From: Xanthobacteraceae bacterium | GTDB lineage: Bacteria; Pseudomonadota; Alphaproteobacteria; Rhizobiales; Xanthobacteraceae | Direction: 5' to 3' | DNA length: 13,869 nucleotides | Assembly (NCBI GenBank): GCA_030037105.1 | Contig: JASHRY010000031.1 | Coordinates: forward strand, 1 to 13,869 | In this document: one piece after another, positions 1,533-13,869 of the stretch | Layout of the letters: the number at the start of each line of letters is the position of its first letter | Position numbering within the stretch: the first letter of the stretch is position 1 | Translations under genes and position numbers: made by a program | The notes under the pieces: model-generated | Databases searched by the model: none | Told to the model about the DNA's origin: nothing | The model's input: the letters and a program-made list of their open reading frames with translations, nothing else

Positions 1533-1729
1533 TTGGCCCCCGCCGGTTGGCATGCCGCTTGAATGAAGCGCGTGGCTCGGCGAGTCCGAGTGCGTGCGTT
1601 CCGGACTGCTTTTTGGACGAATTTTCTACGATTATGCCATCATATGCCTGTTTATTCTAAGTTTATGGAGGGACATTGCATACAAAGGGACAAAATTCTA
1701 TTGGGTCGCTCAAGCTAAGGGTTTCCCAA

Positions 1730-3187
1730 ATGAATCGCGCTCCGATCGAAGTTCAGGCAGCCCGCATGGGCGCTCTGTCGCGACTGCCCGCATTTTTCGC
1801 GCTTGAGAACAAGCGCGCGGTTGTCGTCGGCGGCAGCCGAGCCGCTGCCTGGAAGGCCGAACTCTTATCGGCGGCAGGCGCGCACGTAGACGTCATCGCA
1901 CCGCAGCCCAGTGAAGAGATGTTGGCGCTTGCCGTCGCGGCGCCGGTTGGTCCCGTAGCGGTGCACGAACGGCGCTGGGCGAGCGATGATCTCGCCGGCG
2001 CCGCGATTGCGGTGGCCGATTGTGCCGACGACGCCGAGGCCGGGCAGTTTGCCGCTGCCGCGCGCGCAGCAGGCGTGCCGGTCAACGTCATCGACCGGCC
2101 GGCCTTTTGCGATTTCGCCTTCGGTGCCATCGTCAATCGTTCGCCCTTGGTCATTGGCATTTCGACCGATGGCGCCGCTCCGGTTTTCGGCCAGGCGATC
2201 CGCGCCAAAATCGAGGCGTTGATCCCGCAAGGCTTTGCGCGTTGGGCGGAGGCCGCGCGGGCTTGGCGCCCGCGCGTGCAAGCGCTCGCGCTGCCGTTCC
2301 GCGACCGCCGCAATTTCTGGGAAAGATTCACCGATCGCGCCGTCGCCGCGCCCGACAAGGCGCCGACCAGAGCCGACCTCGAAACATTGCTCAAGCCGAC
2401 CGAAGCGCCGGAAGCCGGATCCATCATCCTCGTCGGCGCCGGCCCCGGCGACCCGGAACTGTTGACGCTGCGCGCATTGCGCGCGCTGCAATCGGCCGAC
2501 GTGATCCTGTTCGACAATCTCGTATCACCAGCCGTCCTCGATTTTGCGCGGCGCGAAGCGAGGAAAATGCTGGTCGGCAAGGCTGGCCGCGCACCTTCGT
2601 GCCGCCAAGACGAGATCAACGCGTTGATGATCTCGCTCGCCAAAGCGGGTCGGCGCGTGGTGCGGCTCAAAGGCGGCGATCCGATGATCTTCGGTCGCGC
2701 CGATGAGGAGATCGCCGCGTGTCGCGCGGCCGGGATTGCGGTCGCCGTCGTGCCCGGCGTGACGGCGGCGCAGGGCGTCGCGAGCCGCCTCACGGTGTCG
2801 CTGACGCGACGCGCCGAGGCGCGCCGCGTGCAATACATCACCGGCCATGACCGGAACGGCCAGCTGCCGGACGACGTCGATTGGGCGAGTATCGTCGACC
2901 CGGCGGTGACGACAATCGTGTACATGCCGACGAAGACGCTGCCTGACCTCGTCGGCAAAGCGCTTGCGGCGGGACTTGATCCGGCCATGCCCGCCGTTGC
3001 GGTCGCCAGCGCCACGCGCAACGACGAACGCGTGATCGCCGGGAGCATCGTCGATCTTCCCGGGCGGCTCGCGGCCGAAGCCCCCTCGGGACCGGTCGTC
3101 GTGATGATCGGGCGCGTGTTCGCGGAGTACGCCGCCGGTAGAGCTCATGCGGCGATCGAGGCCGGCTTGGCTCGCGCGCGGGCCTGA
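1730..3187 (+). CDS. cysG: Siroheme synthase (precorrin-2 dehydrogenase / ferrochelatase / uroporphyrinogen-III methyltransferase)
   Basis: Makes siroheme, the cofactor of assimilatory sulfite and nitrite reductases, from uroporphyrinogen III: two SAM-dependent methylations, NAD-dependent oxidation, then iron insertion. The 485-residue product has both halves. Residues 29-58 form an NAD-binding Rossmann segment (VVVGGSRAAA, slightly unusual for the normal GGG pattern). Asp122 in VNVIDRP matches the catalytic Asp of CysG, and residues 138-166 are the conserved RSPLVIGISTDGAAPVF region. The methyltransferase half starts at 232 with VGAGPGDPELLTLRAL, then VRLKGGDPMIFGRADEE (311-327) and VVPGVTAAQGVAS (340-352). 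ATG 1730 was chosen because AAGG sits nine bases upstream; a TTG at 1676 has a GGAGG only three bases away and adds an unconserved leader. Met13 is another possible start. No sulfite reductase gene follows, which is not the commonest arrangement. The reductase gene downstream, 88 bp away, may be cotranscribed. Confidence 0.95.
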   Translation: MNRAPIEVQAARMGALSRLPAFFALENKRAVVVGGSRAAAWKAELLSAAGAHVDVIAPQPSEEMLALAVAAPVGPVAVHERRWASDDLAGAAIAVADCADDAEAGQFAAAARAAGVPVNVIDRPAFCDFAFGAIVNRSPLVIGISTDGAAPVFGQAIRAKIEALIPQGFARWAEAARAWRPRVQALALPFRDRRNFWERFTDRAVAAPDKAPTRADLETLLKPTEAPEAGSIILVGAGPGDPELLTLRALRALQSADVILFDNLVSPAVLDFARREARKMLVGKAGRAPSCRQDEINALMISLAKAGRRVVRLKGGDPMIFGRADEEIAACRAAGIAVAVVPGVTAAQGVASRLTVSLTRRAEARRVQYITGHDRNGQLPDDVDWASIVDPAVTTIVYMPTKTLPDLVGKALAAGLDPAMPAVAVASATRNDERVIAGSIVDLPGRLAAEAPSGPVVVMIGRVFAEYAAGRAHAAIEAGLARARA

Positions 3188-4732: not shown

Positions 4733-5113
4733 ATGTTCCGGCTGATCGGCATTCCGGTGCTCGCCGTTGCCGGGGTGTTGATCTACAGGGGGCTGCGCGA
4801 CCATTTCGTCCTGCCGGAATGCGATTCGGCGCGCGCCAAGCACACGCTGTCCGATGTTCTCTCCCAGCTCAAGTTCGAGCCGTTGCGCAACGCCTCGATC
4901 AAGACGATTGCAAGCGGCAAGGACGAAGTCGTTTGTAGTGCGGTCTTGGCTTTGCCGGGCGGCGCCAAGCTGAACGTCGAGTACAGCTTTTTCTGGCAGG
5001 GTGCCGCGGCGAAGATGAGATATTCGATATCGCGTCAGCCGTTGCACAACTCGGACAGCGACCCGCGGCGTGGAGGCGTGCGGGCGCTTTATGACTTGGC
5101 CGGCGCGCGATAG
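4733..5113 (+). CDS. Small membrane-anchored or exported hypothetical protein
   Basis: A 126-residue protein starting with a hydrophobic anchor or uncleaved signal (MFRLIGIPVLAVAGVLIY), then a periplasmic-looking domain. That domain has the features PECDSARAKHTLSDVLSQL, SGKDEVVCSAVLAL and VEYSFFWQGAAAKMRYSISR. The paired cysteines in the ECDS and VVCSA segments could form a disulfide. Similar conserved hypothetical proteins (ECDS near the start, VEYSFFW near the end) occur in Bradyrhizobium-like genomes; no function is known to me. The start at 4733 was chosen because it places the hydrophobic segment at the N-terminus. An in-frame ATG at 4628 has AAGG at a good distance but adds 35 low-complexity residues right next to the palindromic repeat. 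The gene converges with tetR, and their last 25 bases overlap. Confidence 0.72.
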   Translation: MFRLIGIPVLAVAGVLIYRGLRDHFVLPECDSARAKHTLSDVLSQLKFEPLRNASIKTIASGKDEVVCSAVLALPGGAKLNVEYSFFWQGAAAKMRYSISRQPLHNSDSDPRRGGVRALYDLAGAR

Positions 5114-5742
5114 GCGGCGAGGAAGGCTTTGACCGCAATCCGCACCCCGCGCTCGATCTGCTCCGGACTTGGCGCCGAAGCGAAGTTGAACACGATCGGC
5201 TTGAACAATGCGGCGTGAGTCGATTCCATGAACTGCGCCGCGGTGATTTCGCAATCCTCGATGGCCAGCACGCCGGCCGCGACCTGCGCGGCGAGATAAG
5301 CGGCGAGCCGGGCGATGCCGGTCGCTGGGCCGGCCTCGTAGAATTTTCGTCCGACTTCCGGCATGCGGTCGGCGATGGCGATCACGGTGCGGATCGCCGA
5401 CGCCTTCTCCGGCCGGCACAAAAACTTGACGTAGACGATGCCGAGCCGTGTGAGCGCGGCCTCCACGTCGTGATCGTCTGGGTCGAGATCGAAGATGCCT
5501 TCCGCCTGCGCATCGCATTCCTGCTCGACGATGGCTTCGAACAATTGCTCCTTGTTGGCGAAATAGACGTAGAGCGTCCCTTTGGAGACGCCGGCCGCCC
5601 GCGCGATATCGTTCATGCTTGCCGCATCGAAGCCTTGCGCCAGGAACATGGCGCGGGCGCCGTCGATGATCTGGCGCCGCTTGGCGCTGTCTTCGTCGCC
5701 GTCCGCAGGGAGAGGCCGATCCAATATCGTTGGTTCGCTCAT
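5089..5742 (-). CDS. TetR/AcrR-family repressor of the adjacent efflux operon
   Basis: A 217-residue regulator. Residues 20-66 form the TetR DNA-binding domain: RRQIIDGARAMFLAQGF, then the helix-turn-helix SMNDIARAAGVSKGTLYVYF and the closing NKEQLFEAIV. The remaining 150 residues are the helical ligand-binding and dimerisation domain of the AefR-like type. The ATG is preceded by AGGG eight bases upstream. It diverges from the emrA-emrB pair, and the shared spacer holds two identical palindromes, one inside its own promoter. That is the classic layout of a repressor controlling itself and a drug pump. The inducing ligand cannot be read from sequence. Its 3' end overlaps the convergent hypothetical gene by 25 bases. 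Confidence 0.93.
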   Translation of the reverse strand: MSEPTILDRPLPADGDEDSAKRRQIIDGARAMFLAQGFDAASMNDIARAAGVSKGTLYVYFANKEQLFEAIVEQECDAQAEGIFDLDPDDHDVEAALTRLGIVYVKFLCRPEKASAIRTVIAIADRMPEVGRKFYEAGPATGIARLAAYLAAQVAAGVLAIEDCEITAAQFMESTHAALFKPIVFNFASAPSPEQIERGVRIAVKAFLAAYRAPAKS

Positions 5743-5822: not shown

Positions 5823-5851
5823 AATATATGATGACCGAACCGTTCGGTCAA
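5823..5851 (-). promoter_or_regulatory. Predicted tetR promoter overlapping operator 1
   Basis: On the minus strand TTGACC (5851-5846) and TATATT (5828-5823) are separated by exactly 17 bases, a near-consensus sigma-70 promoter. The palindrome at 5832-5850 fills the spacer and part of the -35 box, so bound repressor would block RNA polymerase. The 5' leader to the ATG at 5742 would be about 75 bases. Confidence 0.6.
5832..5850. promoter_or_regulatory. Operator 1, 19-bp perfect palindrome
   Basis: TGACCGAACCGTTCGGTCA: nine-base arms around a single central base. An identical copy lies 51 bp away centre to centre. The shared flank AATAT-(T/C)-GA extends the repeat to 26 bp with one mismatch. 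Presumed site for the TetR-family protein encoded next door; TetR-family sites are usually palindromes of this size. Confidence 0.85.
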
Positions 5852-5853
5852 TA

Positions 5854-5882
5854 TTGACTCCTGCTCTCTCCGCAATTATTGG
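5854..5882 (+). promoter_or_regulatory. Predicted promoter of the emrA-emrB operon
   Basis: TTGACT (5854-5859) matches five of six consensus -35 bases. It is followed after 17 bases by TATTGG (5877-5882), a weak -10. It sits between the two operators, so transcription would start at about 5889, within operator 2. The weak -10 is the main doubt. Confidence 0.45.
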
Positions 5883-5901
5883 TGACCGAACCGTTCGGTC
5901 A
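5883..5901. promoter_or_regulatory. Operator 2, identical 19-bp palindrome at the emrA transcription start
   Basis: Second exact copy of TGACCGAACCGTTCGGTCA, placed just after the predicted emrA -10 and six bases before the GAGGGAG ribosome binding site. The 51-bp distance to operator 1 is near five helical turns, so two repressor dimers could sit on about the same face of the DNA. Confidence 0.85.
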
Positions 5902-5919
5902 ATATCGAGGGAGTGCATT

Positions 5920-7233
5920 GTGTATCACAAAAAACAACTGGATAGCGCCCAATCCCGCTTTCAAATCGTCTCGACCGAAGATCAGGAAGCCGCCGAGGCA
6001 ACCGAGGCAACCGCGTCAACCGACGATCATGACAAGCCGGCCCAAGGGCATTCGTCGGGCCAACAACAGGCGGCAGAGGCATTTTTGCCGGCTCCAGCAC
6101 AACCGACCCCCGCCGGGACCGGGCCGGCTGTGCCGGTCGGCAAAGAAAAACTGCACCGACGGACTGGCCGCAACCTTGCCTTCGGCGCGCTGCTCCTGCT
6201 TGTCGTCGGCGCGGCAGGTTGGTTCGGGTACGGCTGGTGGACGGTCGGCCGCTTCACGGTCTCGACCGACGACGCCTACGTCCAGGCCTACAACACCACG
6301 CTCGCGGCGAAAGTGCCCGGCTATATCGCCAACGTCGCGGTCACGGATAATGAGCGCGTCCATGCCGGCGATGTGATCGCTGCGCTCGATGACGGCGATT
6401 ACCGGCTCGCGGTCGACTCGGCGCGTGGAAAAGTTGCGACCCAAGAGGCGACCATTGCCCGGATCGGCCATCAGATCGTCGCCCAGGAGGCCGCAGTCGA
6501 AGAGGCCAAGGCGCAGCTCGCCTCGGCGCAAGCCGCGGTCACGCGCACGCAATTGGAGCTTGACCGCCAGAATTTCCTGGTCGCGCGCGATGCCTCGAGC
6601 CGCCAATTGCTCGAGCAGGCGCAGGCGAACCGCGATCAGGCGGTCGCCGCCGTGCACAGCGCGCAAGCCGCGATCGATTCGGCGGCGGCGAACGTTGACG
6701 TGCTCAAGGGCCAACAGCGGGAGGCGATCAGCACCCTCGACGAACTTAAGACCGCGCTCGCCAAGGCCGAGCGCGATTTGTCGTTCACCGTCATCCGCGC
6801 GCCGATCGACGGTGTGATCGGAAACCGCGCGATGCAGACCGGCGACTACGTGCAGACCGGTCAGCGGCTGGCGAGCCTGGTCCCGCTCGACGAGGTCTAC
6901 GTCAACGCCAACTTCAAGGAAACGCAATTGGCCCGGCTGCGCCCTGGCCAGCCGGCCGCGATCGCGGTCGACGCGCTGCCTGAGCACGCGATCCAGGGCA
7001 CGGTCGAGAGCGTTTCTCCCGCCTCCGGCGCGGTGTTTTCGCTCTTGCCGCCGGACAACGCGACCGGAAACTTCACCAAGATCGTGCAGCGGCTGCCGGT
7101 GCGTATCCGCGTGCCGTCCGCCGTCGCCAGCCAAGGCTTGTTGCGCCCCGGCATGTCCGTGGTGGTGAGCGTGAATACCAAAGCGGGCGCGTCGGCCGGA
7201 AACGGCGCGGCAATGCAGAGCGCGGCGCGCTGA
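5920..7233 (+). CDS. EmrA/HlyD-family membrane fusion protein of an MFS efflux pump
   Basis: The periplasmic adaptor that links an inner-membrane MFS exporter to an outer-membrane channel. The 437-residue product has a long polar cytoplasmic N-terminus (1-80, Ala/Gln/Pro-rich) and one transmembrane helix at about 86-108. The lipoyl/barrel-sandwich half-motif follows (STDDAYVQAYNTTLAAKVPG, then RVHAGDVIAALDD). Next comes an alpha-helical hairpin of about 120 residues rich in Ala, Gln and Glu, then the second half-motif (VIRAPIDGVIGNRAMQTGDY) and a beta-barrel with FKETQLARLRPGQPA, ending in LLRPGMSVVVSV. The GTG at 5920 was chosen because GAGGGAG (5907-5913) lies six bases before it and because any earlier start would fall upstream of the predicted transcription start. 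It is cotranscribed with the transporter gene 19 bases downstream and under TetR control. Confidence 0.93.
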   Translation: MYHKKQLDSAQSRFQIVSTEDQEAAEATEATASTDDHDKPAQGHSSGQQQAAEAFLPAPAQPTPAGTGPAVPVGKEKLHRRTGRNLAFGALLLLVVGAAGWFGYGWWTVGRFTVSTDDAYVQAYNTTLAAKVPGYIANVAVTDNERVHAGDVIAALDDGDYRLAVDSARGKVATQEATIARIGHQIVAQEAAVEEAKAQLASAQAAVTRTQLELDRQNFLVARDASSRQLLEQAQANRDQAVAAVHSAQAAIDSAAANVDVLKGQQREAISTLDELKTALAKAERDLSFTVIRAPIDGVIGNRAMQTGDYVQTGQRLASLVPLDEVYVNANFKETQLARLRPGQPAAIAVDALPEHAIQGTVESVSPASGAVFSLLPPDNATGNFTKIVQRLPVRIRVPSAVASQGLLRPGMSVVVSVNTKAGASAGNGAAMQSAAR

Positions 7234-7252: not shown

Positions 7253-8839
7253 ATGGCGCAAGGAGCGACAATCACCCTCTCCGGCGGCCCCGGCATGATT
7301 CCGGCCGCGGCCGAGCGCGTCGATCCCGCACGCGTCGTCGCCTTTCTGGCGATGTGCTTCGGGATGTTCATGGCGTTTCTCGACATCCAGGTCGTTTCCG
7401 CATCGCTGTCGGAAATCCAGGCCGGTCTCGCCGCTTCGAGCGACGAGATCACCTGGGTGCAAACCTCGTATTTGATGGCCGAGGTGGTCGCCATTCCATT
7501 GTCCGGCTTCCTGTCGCGTGCGCTGGGCACGCGCGCCATGTTCGCGACCGCGGCCGCCGGTTTCACCGTCGCCAGCCTGATGTGCGGGCTCACCTCGTCG
7601 ATGAATCAAATGATTTTCTGGCGCGCGGTACAAGGCTTCATCGGCGGCGGCATGGTGCCGACGGTGTACGCGGCGGCCTATACGATCTTTCCGCAGTCGC
7701 GCCGGTCGGTGATCGTGCCGATGATCGGGCTGGTGGCGACGCTGGCACCCACCATCGGCCCGACTGTGGGCGGCTATCTCACCGACATGCTGTCGTGGCA
7801 CTGGCTGTTCTTCATCAACATCGTGCCCGGCATCGTGGTGACCATCGCGGCGATAACCCTGATCGACTTCGACCGGCCGGATTTCTCGCTGTTCGATACG
7901 TTCGACTGGACGGGGTTGATCTTCATGGCGCTGTTCCTGGGAACGCTCGAATACGTGCTCGAAGACGGGCCGCGCTATGACTGGTTCGAGGATTCCACGA
8001 TCGCGCTCGCGGCGACGGTTTCGGCGGTTGCGGCGGTGGTCTTCCTCGTTCGCGTCCTCATGGCGCGCAATCCGATCGTCGACCTGAGGACGTTTCTCGA
8101 TCGCAATTTCGCGTTCGGCAGCCTGTTTTCGTTTGTGCTCGGCATCGGTCTCTACGGCCTGACCTATCTCTATCCGGTCTTTCTCGACGAGATCCGCGGC
8201 TATAACGCGTTGATGGTCGGCGAGACCATGTTCGTGTCCGGCGCCGCGATGTTTGTGAGCGCGCCGCTCGTCGGCCGGCTCATGGATCGGGCCGATCCCC
8301 GCCTCATGCTCACCGCCGGCTTTCTCATCGTCGCGCTCAGCAACTGGGAGATGACCTACGTCACCAAGGATTGGGATTTCTGGGAGCTGTTTGTGCCGCA
8401 GCTCCTACGCGGCTTCGGCATGATGCTGTCGATCGTGCCGATCACCAACGTGGCGCTCGGCACGCTCGCGCCCGAGCGGCTGAAGAACGCCTCCGGTCTG
8501 TTCAACCTCACGCGCAATCTCGGCGGCGCGGTCGGGCTCGCCGGCCTCAACACCGTGCTCGACAAGCGGATCGACCTGCACCTGGCGCGGCTGCACGACG
8601 CCGTCACCTGGGCGCGGCAGCCGGTGCTCGAAGCATTGAACGGTCTTGCCGCGCGCATCCCCGGTCCGGACGCGCAGAACATGGCGCTGAAGCAGCTCTA
8701 TCTGTTCGTCCGCCAACAGGGGATCGTGATGGCTTTCGCCGACGTCTTTCTGCTCTTGAGCCTGATGTTCGTGGCGTTTGCCGGGCTGACGGTGCTCATG
8801 CGCCGCCCGGCGCCGATGACCGCCGGCGCCGGACACTAG
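7253..8839 (+). CDS. EmrB/QacA-type (DHA2) MFS multidrug exporter, 14 transmembrane segments
   Basis: Proton-driven drug exporter of the inner membrane, working with the fusion protein encoded just upstream. The 528-residue product shows 14 hydrophobic segments. Family signatures are FLDIQVVSASLSEIQ in helix 1 (motif D1 region), RAVQGFIGGGMVPTVYAAAY in helix 4, and the antiporter motif LAPTIGPTVGGYLTD-x-x-SWHWLFFINIVPG across helices 5 and 6. The LDIQVVSASL version, rather than LDTTIVNVALP, belongs to a large proteobacterial EmrB subgroup. GAGG lies eight bases before the ATG. The substrate cannot be deduced; toxic hydrophobic compounds, plant phenolics or fatty acids are all possible. No outer-membrane TolC-like gene is present, so a channel encoded elsewhere is needed. 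Confidence 0.95.
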   Translation: MAQGATITLSGGPGMIPAAAERVDPARVVAFLAMCFGMFMAFLDIQVVSASLSEIQAGLAASSDEITWVQTSYLMAEVVAIPLSGFLSRALGTRAMFATAAAGFTVASLMCGLTSSMNQMIFWRAVQGFIGGGMVPTVYAAAYTIFPQSRRSVIVPMIGLVATLAPTIGPTVGGYLTDMLSWHWLFFINIVPGIVVTIAAITLIDFDRPDFSLFDTFDWTGLIFMALFLGTLEYVLEDGPRYDWFEDSTIALAATVSAVAAVVFLVRVLMARNPIVDLRTFLDRNFAFGSLFSFVLGIGLYGLTYLYPVFLDEIRGYNALMVGETMFVSGAAMFVSAPLVGRLMDRADPRLMLTAGFLIVALSNWEMTYVTKDWDFWELFVPQLLRGFGMMLSIVPITNVALGTLAPERLKNASGLFNLTRNLGGAVGLAGLNTVLDKRIDLHLARLHDAVTWARQPVLEALNGLAARIPGPDAQNMALKQLYLFVRQQGIVMAFADVFLLLSLMFVAFAGLTVLMRRPAPMTAGAGH

Positions 8840-10129: not shown

Positions 10130-10302
10130 GCTGTTGCTCCGTTACAATCGGCAGTCCCAAGGCAACACGCGCGACCAATGAATCAGTACGCGCCAGGCTG
10201 GCGGTCGGCTACTGCCCTATTGGGTTGCCGCAGTCCTCAATCCAAGCGCCCGGGGCTCAATGTCGCTAACGGCACACGCGGACTTCGGGGAACTTCCGCG
10301 CT

Positions 10303-10331
10303 ATGTCGGCTTTCTGGCTCGAAACGGACAT
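10303..10331. repeat. Imperfect palindrome just past the oxoprolinase stop
   Basis: ATGTCGGCTTT (10303-10313) and AAACGGACAT (10322-10331) form an imperfect inverted repeat around TCTGGCTCG. It starts 11 bases after the oxoprolinase stop on the minus strand. ATGTCCG-type palindromes are widespread between genes in Bradyrhizobium relatives, and this looks like a worn copy. A hairpin here could act as the terminator of the oxoprolinase transcript. Confidence 0.45.
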
Positions 10332-10341
10332 CCGCCGGCGT

Positions 10342-13300
10342 TTATGAGAACTGGCCGCGGTTCGAATCCGGGATTCCGTATCCTCCCGCGGTCGGCGTCT
10401 TGATGATGATCGCCTCGCCGGCGTCGAGGACGGTGGCGTCGCAGCCGGCGAGCTGTTCCAGGCGCCCGTCCTTGCGCCGTACCCAGTTCTCTCCGACCTC
10501 GCCATCGCCGCCGCCAGCAAGCCCGAACGGCCGCACGCGGCGGTGCCCGGACAGGATGGTGCACTCCATCTTCTCCAGGAAGCGGATGGCGCGAATGACG
10601 CCGTCGCCGGCGCTCCAGCGGCCGCGGCCGCCGGAATTCTTGCGGATGTGGAAATCCTCAAGCAGTACGGGATAACGGAACTCGAGAACTTCCGGATCGG
10701 TGAGCCGGGTATTGGTCATGTGGGTGTGCACGGCGTCGGTGCCGGGAAAGTCCGGACCCGCCGGCGAGCCGGAACAGATGGTCTCGTAATACTGATAGCG
10801 CGCATCGCCGAAGTTGAGATTGTTCATGGTGCCCTGCGCCGCCGCCGTGGTGTCGAGCGCGCCGAACAGGCAATTGGTCACTTCCTGCGAGGTCTCGACG
10901 TTGCCGGCGACGACGGCCGCGGGAAATTGCGGCGACAGCATCGATTTTTTCGGAATGATGATGCGGATCGGGCGCAGGCAGCCGGCGTTCATCGGGATGT
11001 CATCGTCGACCATGACGCGGAAGACGTAGAGCACGGCGGCACGCGTGACCGGCTCCGGCGCGTTGAAGTTGGTCGGCTGCTGCGGGCTGGTGCCGGTGAA
11101 ATCGATCGTGGCCGCGCGCCGCGTCTTGTCGACGCTGATGCGCACCTTGATGACGGTGCCCTGGTCCATCTCGACGGCGAACGCGCTGTCGTGCAGCCGG
11201 TCGATCACGCGGCGCACGCTTTCGGCGGCATTGTCCTGTACGTGGCGCATATAGGCGCGCATCACGGGCAGCGTGAAGTGGCGCACCATCTTGCGCAGCT
11301 CCTGCACGCCTTTCTCGTTGGCGGCGATCTGCGCCTTAAGGTCGTTGACGTTCTGCAGCGGATTGCGCGCCGGGTATTCGCCGCCGGCGAGCAACGCCTG
11401 CAGCTCCTTCTCGCGGAAGCGGCCGCGCGCGACAAGCTTGAAATTGTCGATGTAGACGCCTTCCTGGGCGATCGTGGTGGCGTTCGGCGACATCGAGCCC
11501 GGCGAAATGCCGCCGACGTCGGCGTGATGGCCGCGCGAAGCGACCCAGAACAGGATTTTCCGCTCCCCGAACACCGGCGTGCAAACGGTGATGTCGGGCA
11601 GATGCGTGCCGCCGTTATAAGGCGCGTTGATGGCGTAGACGTCGCCGGGACGAATCTTTCCCTTGTTCTCCCGAATGATCGTTTCCACTGCGCGATCCAT
11701 CGAGCCGAGATGGACCGGCACGTGCTGGGCATTGGCGACGAGCGAGCCGTCGCCGTCGAACACCGCGCAGGAGAAATCGAGCCGCTCCTTGATGTTCACC
11801 GAATAGGCGGTGTTCTGCAGCGCGACGCCCATCTGCTCGGCGATCGACACAAACAGGTTGTTGAACACTTCGAGCATCACCGGATCGGCCTTGGTGCCCA
11901 CCGGACGCGAGCGCGTGAGTTTCGTGACCCGGCGCAGCAGCAAATGATTCTTAGCCGTGAGCTCGGCCTGCCAGCCCGCTTCGACGACCACGGTCTGATG
12001 CGGCTCGATGACGATGGCCGGCCCTTTGATCTTGTGTCCGGGCGCGAGCGTCTCGCGCGTGTAAACGCCCGCGCGCCGCCAGCGGCCTTGCGAGAAAAAT
12101 CGCGTCCGGCGGGCCGGTGCGGGAAGCGGCGCCCGCGTCGTCTTGCGCGGCTGCTCGCGAAAGCGCCCGCCGCCGCCGACCGCCTCGACCGAGACCGCTT
12201 CGATGACCAGCTCTTTGCTTCGGTCGATGAAGCCGAAGCGCGCTCTGTGCGCGCGCTCGAAGGCATGCTGCATTTGGTGGAGCGAGGCGAGCGGCTCCCC
12301 TCCGCCTTGTGGGGAGGGGTCGGGAGTGGAAGTCGGAAGGCGGCGCGCAGGGGAAGATCGACGTTTGCTCGCGCGTCTCATTCCGGATGCCGCCTCCCAA
12401 CCCCCCTCCCTGTCCTCCTCCAAAAGGGGGGAGGGATAAGAAATAGCACCCGCCGGGACGATCAGCGCCGTATCGGTGCCGGCGTAGCGGATATGCGCGC
12501 GCACGTAGAGCTTGATTTTCTCCGCGGCAACGCCCTGGCCGGCGACCTCCGCAACCGCGGCACGCGCCAGATCGCGTGCCACGCGCGCGATGCTCGCCCG
12601 CGCCTCCGCGCCGAACGGCTTCTCGATGGCCTCATGACGGACGCTGCGGATGGAGGCAAGCCCCATTCCGTAAGCGGAAAGGAGCGACGAGAGCGGATGG
12701 ATCAAAACGCCGGTCATGCCGAGCGCGTCGGCGACCAGGCAGGCGTGCTGACCGCCGGCGCCGCCGAAGCAGTTGAGCGCGTAGCGCGTCACGTCATAGC
12801 CGCGTTGCACCGAGATTTTTTTGATCGCGTTCGCCATGTTCTCGACCGCGATCTTGATGAAGCCGTCGGCGACCTCTTCGGCCGAACGGCCGTCGCCGAC
12901 CTCCTTGGCCAGCGCGGCGAAGGCCGCGCGCACCGCGTCGGCGTCGAGCGGCTCGTTCTGTCGCGGCCCGAATATTTTTGGGAAAAAGTCCGGGATAAGC
13001 TTGCCGACCATCACATTGGCGTCGGTGACGGCGAGCGGGCCGCCGCGGCGATAGCATTTCGGTCCCGGATTGGCGCCCGCCGAATCGGGTCCGACGCGGA
13101 AGCGGGCGCCGTCGAAGTGCAAGATGGAGCCGCCGCCGGCCGCGACCGAGTGAAGGAGCATCATCGGCGCGCGCATGCGCACGCCCGCGACTTCCGTCTC
13201 GTAGGTTCGCTCGTATTCGCCGGCAAAATGCGACACGTCCGTCGAGGTGCCGCCCATGTCGAAGCCGATGAGCCGCGAAAAGCCGGCCTCGCGCCCGGTC

Positions 13301-13869
13301 TCGGCCATGCCGACGACGCCGGCCGCCGGCCCCGACAGGATCGCGTCCTTGCCGCGAAACAGTTCGGCCGCGGTCAGCCCGCCCGACGACATCATGAACA
13401 TCAGGCGGGTCCTCTCCCCTCCCCCTTGCGGGGAGGGGGCGGGGGTGGGGGTCGGGAGGCTTTCCGCATACGTCGTCGTTTGCGCACTCCCTTCCGGCCC
13501 TCCTCCCTTGCCCTTCCCGACAAGAGGGGAGTGAGATGAGTGCAAGTCCTCCGCCACTTGCGCCACGTAGCGGCGCAGGATCGGCGACAGATAGCCGTCG
13601 ACGACGGTGGTGTCGCCGCGGCTTACGAGCTTGATGAGCGGAGACACTTCGTGGCTCGCCGACACCTGGGGAAAGCCGATGTCGCGCGCGAGCGCCGCGA
13701 CTTGCCGTTCGTGCTCGCTGTAACGGTAAGCGTGCATCAGCACGATGGCGACCGCTCGAATGCCGTCCGCGAGCGCGCGCTGCAGATCGACACGTACCGC
13801 GTCGAGATCCACGGCGCGCTCGACCGTGCCGTCGGCGCGCACGCGCTCGTCGATCTCGACCACGCGCTC
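10342..13869 (-). CDS. 5-oxoprolinase / hydantoinase (HyuA-HyuB fusion), 5' end outside window
   Basis: ATP-dependent enzyme of the 5-oxoprolinase family, which opens 5-oxo-L-proline to glutamate or hydrolyses related hydantoins; cytosolic. 1175 residues are visible and the frame runs off the right edge (the GTG at 13863 is internal, with ERVVEID reading through). The HyuA half shows the actin-like ATP-site motif GFDMGGTSTDVS (near 13230-13265), AAGGGSI, GANPGPKCYRRGG-P-AVTDAN, and NCFGGAGGQHA. The HyuB half begins at about 11890 with DPVMLEVFNNLFVSIAEQMG, then HVPVHLGSM, INAPYNGGTHLPDITV, SRGHHADVGG and the C-terminal GDGVIRAIRFLE. Without the two repeat insertions (44 and 50 codons), and allowing about 120 missing residues, the length fits the usual 1200 or so. 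No stop interrupts either insertion, so the gene looks functional. Oxoprolinase versus N-methylhydantoinase cannot be settled here. Confidence 0.93.
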   Translation of the reverse strand, partial: ERVVEIDERVRADGTVERAVDLDAVRVDLQRALADGIRAVAIVLMHAYRYSEHERQVAALARDIGFPQVSASHEVSPLIKLVSRGDTTVVDGYLSPILRRYVAQVAEDLHSSHSPLVGKGKGGGPEGSAQTTTYAESLPTPTPAPSPQGGGERTRLMFMMSSGGLTAAELFRGKDAILSGPAAGVVGMAETGREAGFSRLIGFDMGGTSTDVSHFAGEYERTYETEVAGVRMRAPMMLLHSVAAGGGSILHFDGARFRVGPDSAGANPGPKCYRRGGPLAVTDANVMVGKLIPDFFPKIFGPRQNEPLDADAVRAAFAALAKEVGDGRSAEEVADGFIKIAVENMANAIKKISVQRGYDVTRYALNCFGGAGGQHACLVADALGMTGVLIHPLSSLLSAYGMGLASIRSVRHEAIEKPFGAEARASIARVARDLARAAVAEVAGQGVAAEKIKLYVRAHIRYAGTDTALIVPAGAISYPSPLLEEDREGGWEAASGMRRASKRRSSPARRLPTSTPDPSPQGGGEPLASLHQMQHAFERAHRARFGFIDRSKELVIEAVSVEAVGGGGRFREQPRKTTRAPLPAPARRTRFFSQGRWRRAGVYTRETLAPGHKIKGPAIVIEPHQTVVVEAGWQAELTAKNHLLLRRVTKLTRSRPVGTKADPVMLEVFNNLFVSIAEQMGVALQNTAYSVNIKERLDFSCAVFDGDGSLVANAQHVPVHLGSMDRAVETIIRENKGKIRPGDVYAINAPYNGGTHLPDITVCTPVFGERKILFWVASRGHHADVGGISPGSMSPNATTIAQEGVYIDNFKLVARGRFREKELQALLAGGEYPARNPLQNVNDLKAQIAANEKGVQELRKMVRHFTLPVMRAYMRHVQDNAAESVRRVIDRLHDSAFAVEMDQGTVIKVRISVDKTRRAATIDFTGTSPQQPTNFNAPEPVTRAAVLYVFRVMVDDDIPMNAGCLRPIRIIIPKKSMLSPQFPAAVVAGNVETSQEVTNCLFGALDTTAAAQGTMNNLNFGDARYQYYETICSGSPAGPDFPGTDAVHTHMTNTRLTDPEVLEFRYPVLLEDFHIRKNSGGRGRWSAGDGVIRAIRFLEKMECTILSGHRRVRPFGLAGGGDGEVGENWVRRKDGRLEQLAGCDATVLDAGEAIIIKTPTAGGYGIPDSNRGQFS
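12292..12441. repeat. In-frame palindromic repeat, copy B, inside the oxoprolinase gene
   Basis: About 150 bp inserted between the conserved segments TALIVPAG and SLHQMQHAFERAHRARFGF. Its edges carry inverted CTCCCC (12295-12300) and GGGGAG (12428-12433). A hairpin, CCCCTCC (12297-12303) with GGAGGGG (12313-12319), opens it, and a second C-rich/G-rich hairpin closes it. Read in the gene's frame it gives 50 residues, including SPLLEEDREGGWE and LPTSTPDPSPQGGGE. It is clearly related to copy A, with more point changes. Confidence 0.85.
13411..13542. repeat. In-frame palindromic repeat, copy A, inside the oxoprolinase gene
   Basis: About 132 bp inserted between the conserved segments RRYVAQVAEDL and TRLMFMMSSGGLTAAELF, which normally are nearly adjacent. 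Edges carry inverted CTCCCCT (13414-13420) and AGGGGAG (13525-13531). CCCCTCCCC (13416-13424) pairs perfectly with GGGGAGGGG (13430-13438). Read in frame it gives 44 residues, including SPLVGKGKGGGPEGS and LPTPTPAPSPQGGGE. The first 40 bases align base for base with copy B with only a few substitutions. Confidence 0.88.

What the first reader, a model, noticed from the sequence alone, without database searches (positions are those of the whole stretch)
12292..12441. Second copy of the same repeat in the same gene, read in the same frame
Copy B shares the left 40 bp, the terminal inverted CTCCCC/GGGGAG and the second hairpin with copy A. It is in the same orientation and the same reading frame, so both give the SPL-(V/L) and LPT-x-TP-x-PSPQGGGE peptide ends. 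The element has six possible frames, so two independent insertions using the same one suggest that this frame is kept open, or that selection filters for it. Copy B has more substitutions than A, which points to two events of different age rather than one recent duplication. A protein-compatible mobile palindrome would be a notable system.
Basis: partly seen in the sequence, partly recalled or inferred. Interest (0 to 1): 0.75.

Follow-up and report, generated by a model that had tools for sequence, protein, structure and literature searches.

The report
Palindromic repeat tolerated in-frame inside proteins
A short, repeated hairpin-forming DNA element sits twice inside a soil bacterium's enzyme gene without breaking it; in related genes such inserts fill the same three places again and again, and in other genes the element is read about half the time in the same one of several possible frames.

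Summary
Copy B (12292-12441) and copy A (13407-13535) are related palindromic repeats read in the same frame of one intact HyuA-HyuB (hydantoinase/oxoprolinase) fusion gene. They belong to a dispersed family: 248 copies in 436 fetched loci plus the window. At least six other copies align better to each than A and B do to one another, so they are separate insertions, not an intragenic duplication. In 321 aligned HyuAB proteins all 244 scored inserts of 15 aa or more peak in three short regions, filled in different lineages by differently sequenced inserts. In copies not scored as in-frame genic, the readings are about equally open. Yet in 47 host-family/frame combinations from a frame-balanced query the window's reading accounts for 24, against 14% expected; a small DNA sample agrees (5 of 13). 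So the frame is favoured, not fixed. The 'different age' argument fails. No target motif and no adjacent Y1 transposase were found. Best reading: a non-autonomous palindromic element whose genic insertions survive at permissive places, preferably in one frame. It works like Rickettsia RPEs and intragenic REPs: a new member of a known kind.

The parts
10342..13869 (-). Host gene: fused HyuA-HyuB (hydantoinase/oxoprolinase), open to the window edge, 1175 aa
   Evidence: ORF; Pfam Hydantoinase_B 6.7e-198, Hydantoinase_A 1.5e-106, Hydant_A_N, Hydant_A_C; N-methylhydantoinase 7hk5, E 4.8e-119, with the insert-free homologue L024 as query
12292..12441 (-). Copy B of the palindromic element, about 50 extra residues, occupies insertion site 2
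12295..12341 (-). Copy B, arm at the 3' side in gene sense (LPTSTPDPSPQGGGE)
   Evidence: (family D3)
12392..12435 (-). Copy B, arm at the 5' side in gene sense (PSPLLEEDREGG)
   Evidence: (pair I1)
13407..13535 (-). Copy A of the element, about 38 extra residues, occupies insertion site 1
13414..13460 (-). Copy A, arm at the 3' side in gene sense (LPTPTPAPSPQGGGE)
13490..13531 (-). Copy A, arm at the 5' side in gene sense (SPLVGKGKGGG), ends approximate
11557..11568 (-). Insertion site 3, empty in the window (GERK between CTPVF and ILFW); filled by this element in 13 of 321 aligned homologues and by other inserts in others

Best explanation
The repeat is a non-autonomous palindromic element of about 110-150 bp, dispersed in Xanthobacteraceae and some other Hyphomicrobiales. 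Its two roughly 45-bp arms are near inverted repeats, each with a small CCCCTTGTGGGG hairpin, around a variable centre. No target motif was detected outside it. Copies that land in genes persist if the insert is a multiple of three, free of stops and at a place where the protein tolerates extra residues; among these, the reading PSPLVGEG...TPTPxPSPQGGGE is kept about three times as often as open frames alone would give. HyuAB has three such places, which different lineages fill, empty or refill. Copies A and B in the window are two such events. Shown: the in-frame copies, the recurring sites, the frame bias, the separateness of A and B. Inferred: mobility, neutrality of the peptide, loop position for site 1, and selection as the cause of the frame bias.
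For: Family and anatomy. Sites: 244 insert peaks in 142 of 321 HyuAB proteins, all at residues 104-124, 428-435 or 669-684 of L024, with at least four differently sequenced insert types at each site (types named from peptide patterns only). Loops: in the model, insert B (pLDDT 25-31) lies between a strand and a helix that are well predicted, and site 3 is a strand-turn-strand at pLDDT 82-85. Separate events: A-B alignment score 100; at least six other copies score 103-120 with B and six 113-132 with A; inserts in one protein are no more alike across sites than those of different proteins (0.267 against 0.290; 384 of 500 permutations as high). Frame bias: 24 of 47 host-family/frame combinations, p = 1.6e-9 against 13.9%; within one arm-spacing class 24:6:9 against 105:102:118, p = 4.6e-4; DNA sample 5 of 13, p = 0.025. 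Drift of B: 15 differences to L001 spread 6:5:4 over codon positions, flanks 93:28:23 with the third position highest.
Against: No exact empty/filled pair at nucleotide level was found for A or B; the nearest relative (L001, 95%) has both. Around insert A the model is poor for the whole stretch 75-180, so it says nothing about site 1. The average peptide properties of the favoured reading (hydropathy, disorder scale, Cys+Trp, hydrophobic share) hardly differ from those of the others, so the selective reason is not identified. The main frame count rests on the best 120 of 168 hits of one composite query; 34 of the 120 were not parsed and 25 of the 86 parsed were dropped before the strict count. 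The null copies come from genomes that need not be those of the protein hits. One search used the window protein as query and so favours the same reading in HyuAB. The DNA-level sample is small.
Confidence: 0.72

Rival explanations
1. Few old insertions, mostly vertical descent: each site was hit once in an ancestor and arm-to-arm gene conversion later swapped the centres, so the common frame is inherited, not selected.
For: Same-site inserts are more alike than different-site ones (0.396 against 0.290). Boundaries at site 3 are nearly constant among the main group of proteins. The window and L001 share both copies.
Against: On the HyuAB tree presence of this element changes at least 20, 22 and 11 times at sites 1, 2, 3, and neighbouring rows carry different insert types there (losses and gains cannot be told apart). 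Three sites in one frame are still three events, and the bias also appears in other genes.
Confidence: 0.25
2. Frame-directed integration: the insertion machinery recognises a target in a fixed codon phase or orientation, so the frame bias arises at integration rather than by selection.
For: Same reading at all three HyuAB sites in the main group, and 24 of 47 host-family/frame combinations elsewhere.
Against: No base preference outside the element in 431 arm ends of copies not scored as in-frame genic: at most 0.06 bit from position -17 outward, 0.10-0.25 bit at -16 to -13 next to the arm. Other readings occur in real genes.
Confidence: 0.1
3. The inserted peptides have a selected function, such as a flexible linker or a regulator of translation through the RNA hairpin.
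For: Strong folding; recurrent hosts in replication, repair and translation, which also recur for other palindromes in print (PMC3733652, passages).
Against: B differs from L001 evenly across codon positions (6:5:4), unlike the gene around it. Inserts come or go on the tree, and 175, 202 and 289 of 321 homologues are empty (excess under 8 residues) at sites 1, 2 and 3.
Confidence: 0.08
4. Annotation artefact: the gene is decaying and the open frame across the repeats is a high-GC coincidence.
For: High-GC DNA is open in many frames; the opposite strand also carries a 998-aa open frame here.
Against: Hydantoinase_A and Hydantoinase_B match over nearly their whole profiles. Hydant_A_C matches only in part (115-185 of 193), but three homologues without these two inserts match it no better (133-182, 133-185 and 134-184). 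Differences to L001 in the flanks fall 93:28:23 with the third codon position highest, and the inserts sit where homologues tolerate inserts.
Confidence: 0.03

Closest known systems
Rickettsia palindromic elements (RPE-1 to RPE-3 and others), with the Wolbachia equivalents (WPE)
   Same: Palindromes of about 100-150 bp inside protein genes without breaking the frame, in solvent-exposed areas, with a conserved encoded peptide; hot spots for inserts of different origin are discussed (PMC3767692 passages; PMC10969869 passages; PMC2229807 passages).
   Different: Different lineage. In-frame genic copies here are a minority (31 of 239 classified copies in a sample), whereas nearly half of the first reported RPEs were in ORFs. 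No sequence comparison with RPEs was made.
Intragenic REPs (GTAG and CGTC superfamilies; Di Nocera and co-workers 2013)
   Same: Small palindromes dispersed in many bacteria including Bradyrhizobium, sometimes inside genes; [quoted passage not shown] PMC3733652 passages) overlaps strikingly with ours.
   Different: The arms here carry no conserved GTAG or CGTC tag in the profile of 431 arm ends, the element is longer, and no Y1 transposase match lay next to a full copy.
Br-REP1 and Br-REP2 of Bradyrhizobium
   Same: Repeated palindromes in the same wider group of bacteria (PMC5082802 passages).
   Different: By eye, the printed consensus sequences do not match the arms here; they are reported from intergenic regions.
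Bru-RS elements of Brucella
   Same: Palindromic repeats of 103-105 bp in Hyphomicrobiales (PMC2267715 passages).
   Different: Our element gave no match (E up to 0.001) in the genomes of L041 Falsochrobactrum and L078 Paenochrobactrum (Brucellaceae by recall).

Membership tests
Protein-coding palindromic elements (RPE-like, functional class) | Repeated palindrome inserted in frame in genuine protein genes | tested here: met
   HyuAB and Pfam-matched hosts: glycyl-tRNA synthetase beta, DNA polymerase III alpha, UvrD, HrpB, QueA (Queuosine_synth), ATP-dependent DNA ligase, DNA polymerase I, class I tRNA synthetase, RluA-type, and others
Protein-coding palindromic elements (RPE-like, functional class) | Inserts at loops or surface | tested here: inconclusive
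   Model with mean pLDDT 66: site 2 and site 3 lie between well-predicted elements; around site 1 residues 75-180 are all poorly predicted; exposure was not computed
Protein-coding palindromic elements (RPE-like, functional class) | Conserved encoded peptide, i.e. preferred frame | tested here: met
   24 of 47 host-family/frame combinations in one reading; preferred, not exclusive
RPE/WPE by descent | Sequence homology to RPE or WPE | not tested
   No RPE sequence was fetched or compared
GTAG or CGTC REP | GTAG or CGTC tetranucleotide at one end of the hairpin | tested here: not met
   Base profile of 431 arm ends shows no such conserved tag
GTAG REP | Associated RAYT (Y1) transposase | tested here: not met
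   PF01797 matches in 3 of 6 genomes and none in element-rich G058 and G002; of the 4 loci with a match (3.1-3.3 kb each), 1 holds a lone arm seed with 3 mismatches near its edge and none a full element
MITE | Terminal inverted repeats plus target-site duplication and a related transposase | tested here: inconclusive
   Arms are inverted repeats; no exact empty site to show a duplication; no related transposase identified
Rfam family | Match above the family's gathering score | tested here: not met
   In 10300-13869 only five matches at E up to 1, all far below their gathering scores

The most novel reading that the evidence does not exclude
The element's reading frame has itself been shaped: copies able to enter genes are selected, or steered at integration, so that one of several readings gives a generic, harmless loop peptide. 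The family would thus be a mobile linker that repeatedly recolonises the same places of the same housekeeping proteins across Hyphomicrobiales, in parallel with unrelated palindromes elsewhere that use the same host genes.
Probability: 0.2. Interest if true: 0.75.

Novelty: new member of a known kind. Interest (0 to 1): 0.5.

Why it matters
Protein-coding palindromes are best known from Rickettsia and from intragenic REPs. Here the same phenomenon appears in high-GC Hyphomicrobiales, with enough cases to measure frame use against unselected copies and to show that differently sequenced inserts keep filling the same places of one enzyme. That makes two old questions testable: whether such inserts are merely tolerated, and whether a preferred frame is selected after insertion or built into it. 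It also warns annotators that PSPLVGEG...PSPQGGGE segments in proteins are repeat-derived.

Tried and rejected
Census of the window's own genome: not possible, no genome is held; relatives were used instead. A profile search with a single arm in nhmmer was too weak (80 hits, 7 below 1e-3) and was replaced by a mismatch scan. The paired-arm gapped pattern over 119 genomes found 0: too strict. Copy B against plasmids, distant mode, E up to 1e-5: no match (the low-complexity filter is on). Intragenic duplication of A into B: rejected. Age difference between A and B: rejected as unproven. Only one frame open by chance: rejected, the readings are about equally open in copies not scored as in-frame genic (LVG/PQG 105, CG/TRG 102, LWG/HKG 118, CG/PQG 85, LVG/HKG 79, LWG/PQG 75, LWG/TRG 71, CG/HKG 65, LVG/TRG 57 of 757). 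Target-phase explanation: no motif. Peptide composition as the reason for the bias: no clear difference. Partial Hydant_A_C match as a sign of damage by insert B: rejected, homologues without the insert match no better. Literature: four searches for palindromes in alphaproteobacterial genomes or genes (listings capped at 20, judged by title and start of abstract), one on hosts and hot spots (7 listed) and one for four core sequences (one unrelated cattle-virus paper) listed no paper that I could recognise as describing this element; two on RPEs gave the comparison papers. The 2002 RPE paper is not held.

Full report
What was checked. The window's minus strand holds a fused HyuA-HyuB gene (1175 aa to the window edge). 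Hydantoinase_A and Hydantoinase_B match over nearly their whole profiles; Hydant_A_N is cut by the window edge, and Hydant_A_C matches only positions 115-185 of 193, but three homologues without these inserts (L024, L004, L007) match that profile no better. Copies A (13407-13535) and B (12292-12441) are related palindromic repeats inside the gene, in one frame, adding about 38 and 52 residues relative to the homologue core. Both fold far better than shuffles. No Rfam family fits.

What the element is. No genome is held for the window. The nearest relative, L001 (a Xanthobacteraceae MAG, 95% identical HyuAB), has 25 matches to copy B in its genome at E up to 1 (the weakest are at chance level). 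Copies from this and other genomes show two arms of about 45 bp that are near inverted repeats of each other, each with a small CCCCTTGTGGGG hairpin, around a variable centre. A copy from G001 used as query matched 41 of 119 genomes of the family (E up to 1e-6) and 34 of 199 of the order (E up to 1e-5); only a few candidates per genome were scored. Among nine named relatives it matched 3: Mesorhizobium prunaredense, Salinarimonas rosea and, weakly, Afipia; not Falsochrobactrum, Paenochrobactrum, Rhizobium lusitanum, Azorhizobium oxalatiphilum, Stappia indica or Labrenzia alba (E up to 0.001). A scan for paired arms over 436 loci plus the window located 248 distinct copies. Of the 239 with enough flank, 31 lie open and in frame in what scores as one coding sequence, 17 in one coding frame with a stop, 70 between same-strand coding flanks in different frames, 59 with one coding flank, 44 with none and 18 between opposite strands. 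The loci were chosen because they matched the element or carry a HyuAB homologue, so this is a sample, not a census.

Same sites. In 321 aligned HyuAB proteins (240 database proteins, 80 loci, the window) 142 carry inserts of 15 residues or more, 244 in all, and every one peaks at residues 104-124, 428-435 or 669-684 of the homologue L024, 45 of 1073 positions (the first and last 8 residues of each row were not scored). A and B are sites 1 and 2; site 3 is empty in the window. Besides this element the sites carry other, differently sequenced inserts (for example a Mesorhizobium type, an AGGGS type, an LQGEG type, a TTDD type and an HPEVRA type). These labels are mine, from peptide patterns; except for the Mesorhizobium type (L049, whose arms the scan found) I did not check at DNA level that they are palindromes. 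On a FastTree tree from the protein core, presence of this element changes at least 20, 22 and 11 times at the three sites; the count does not separate gains from losses. In the structure model (mean pLDDT 66) insert B is unstructured between a well-predicted strand and helix, and site 3 is a strand-turn-strand at pLDDT 82-85; insert A lies in a stretch (75-180) that is poorly predicted throughout, so nothing follows for site 1. The model's best structural match is N-methylhydantoinase 9h03. One of the two protein lists behind this used the window protein as query and therefore favours proteins with the same inserts; the other used L024, which lacks them, and shows fewer inserts, among them other readings (P0019, P0080, P0082, P0086).

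Separate events. At least six other copies align better to A (scores 113-132) and at least six better to B (103-120) than A and B do to one another (100) (the best of many copies). Across 28 HyuAB proteins with two or more inserts of this type, inserts within one protein are no more alike than inserts from different proteins (0.267 against 0.290; 384 of 500 permutations reach the observed mean). So A did not give rise to B. Relative age cannot be told: A has 0 of 128 differences to L001 and B 15 of 146 plus 6 gap columns, but the flanks show the same gradient (0-4 per 150 bp around A, 10-14 around B).

Frame use. In copies not scored as in-frame genic all readings are about equally open (757 open readings, 57 to 118 for each of nine arm combinations). 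LVG, LWG and CG name the three readings of the first arm; PQG, HKG and TRG those of the second. Both window copies are LVG/PQG (the script labels L001's copy B differently because its arm is shorter; its peptide is the same reading). To test other genes I searched 5.8 billion proteins with a composite of six-frame translations of two copies, so that each reading of each arm was equally represented. Of the 120 listed (168 hits at E up to 10), 86 could be parsed: LVG/PQG 41, CG/TRG 15, LWG/HKG 14, CG/PQG 11, others 5. Keeping only inserts at least 25 residues from both ends of a protein with a Pfam domain or named function leaves 61, or 47 host-family/frame combinations: LVG/PQG 24, LWG/HKG 9, CG/PQG 7, CG/TRG 6, CG/HKG 1. 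Against the unselected 13.9% this is p = 1.6e-9; within the one arm-spacing class, 24:6:9 gives p = 4.6e-4. By eye 23 of the 24 also have the end order of the window copies (P0252 has the other). Three of the 47 are HyuA- or HyuB-family proteins; without them 23 of 44, p = 1.9e-9. A second spacing class gives 7:0:0 (CG/PQG, LVG/HKG, LWG/TRG), p = 8e-4. At DNA level, from the 31 in-frame copies I dropped the seven in HyuAB loci (L001 twice, L009, L049, L063, L243, the window), L096 (the insert may lie upstream of the true start) and six close to the ORF start (L201, L252, L296, L329, L384, L429). The remaining 17 make 13 host/frame combinations in Pfam-matched genes: LVG/PQG 5 (p = 0.025), or 6 of 14 with L096 (p = 0.008). 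So the reading is favoured about threefold, but GlyS, DNA polymerase I, DNA polymerase III alpha, an RluA-type enzyme, a class I tRNA synthetase, an enoyl-CoA hydratase, one DNA ligase group and three of four HrpB loci use different readings.

Mechanism. Outside the arms there is no base preference that would mark a target. A Y1 transposase match is absent from three of six genomes including element-rich G058, and in the others no full copy lies in the 3-kb locus around it. What moves the element is therefore unknown. I favour a simple filter: insertions that keep a gene's frame, carry no stop and hit a permissive place survive, and one reading survives best. Why that one is not shown; mean hydropathy, disorder score and Cys+Trp content of the readings differ little.

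Known relatives. Rickettsia RPEs are palindromes in frame in genes at solvent-exposed areas, and hot spots for inserts of different origin have been considered there (PMC3767692, passages; PMC10969869, passages; PMC2229807, passages). Intragenic REPs sit in UvrD, DNA polymerase I, DnaE2, DNA ligase, RNA helicases, tRNA synthetases and tRNA pseudouridine synthases (PMC3733652, passages), close to our host list. The Rickettsia proteins modelled with inserts include DNA polymerase III alpha and a tRNA ribosyltransferase-isomerase, which I take to be QueA; both kinds are hosts here (L091, L186). The element is not a GTAG or CGTC REP by its ends. It works like an RPE; descent from RPEs was not tested.

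Noticed in passing
window 5829-5857 and 5880-5908: Two 29-bp copies (93%) of a palindromic motif containing GACCGAACCGTTCGGTC between a divergent TetR-like gene (5089-5742, minus) and an efflux pair (HlyD-like 5854-7233, MFS-like 7253-8839): looks like a double operator. Gene names are from reading the sequence, not from a family search.
   Followed up: no
window 1676-3187: ORF that reads like a fused siroheme synthase (CysG-like); label recalled, not searched.
   Followed up: no
L143, L161, L186, L235, L254, L285, L292, L388, L403, L082, L221, L091: In-gene copies fall in replication, repair, RNA helicase, tRNA synthetase, QueA and pseudouridine synthase genes, a host spectrum close to the one that PMC3733652 and PMC3767692 report for other palindromes.
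   Followed up: partly
HyuAB homologues P0141, P0147, P0150, P0170, P0238, P0151 and others: Several other insert peptide types (AGGGS, LQGEG, TTDD, HPEVRA, IPGPS) use the same three sites; each may be a palindromic family of its own.
   Followed up: partly
L220, L274, L301, L143: HrpB helicase carries the element in four loci in a similar part of the protein, three in one reading (LWG/PQG) and one in another (LVG/PQG).
   Followed up: partly
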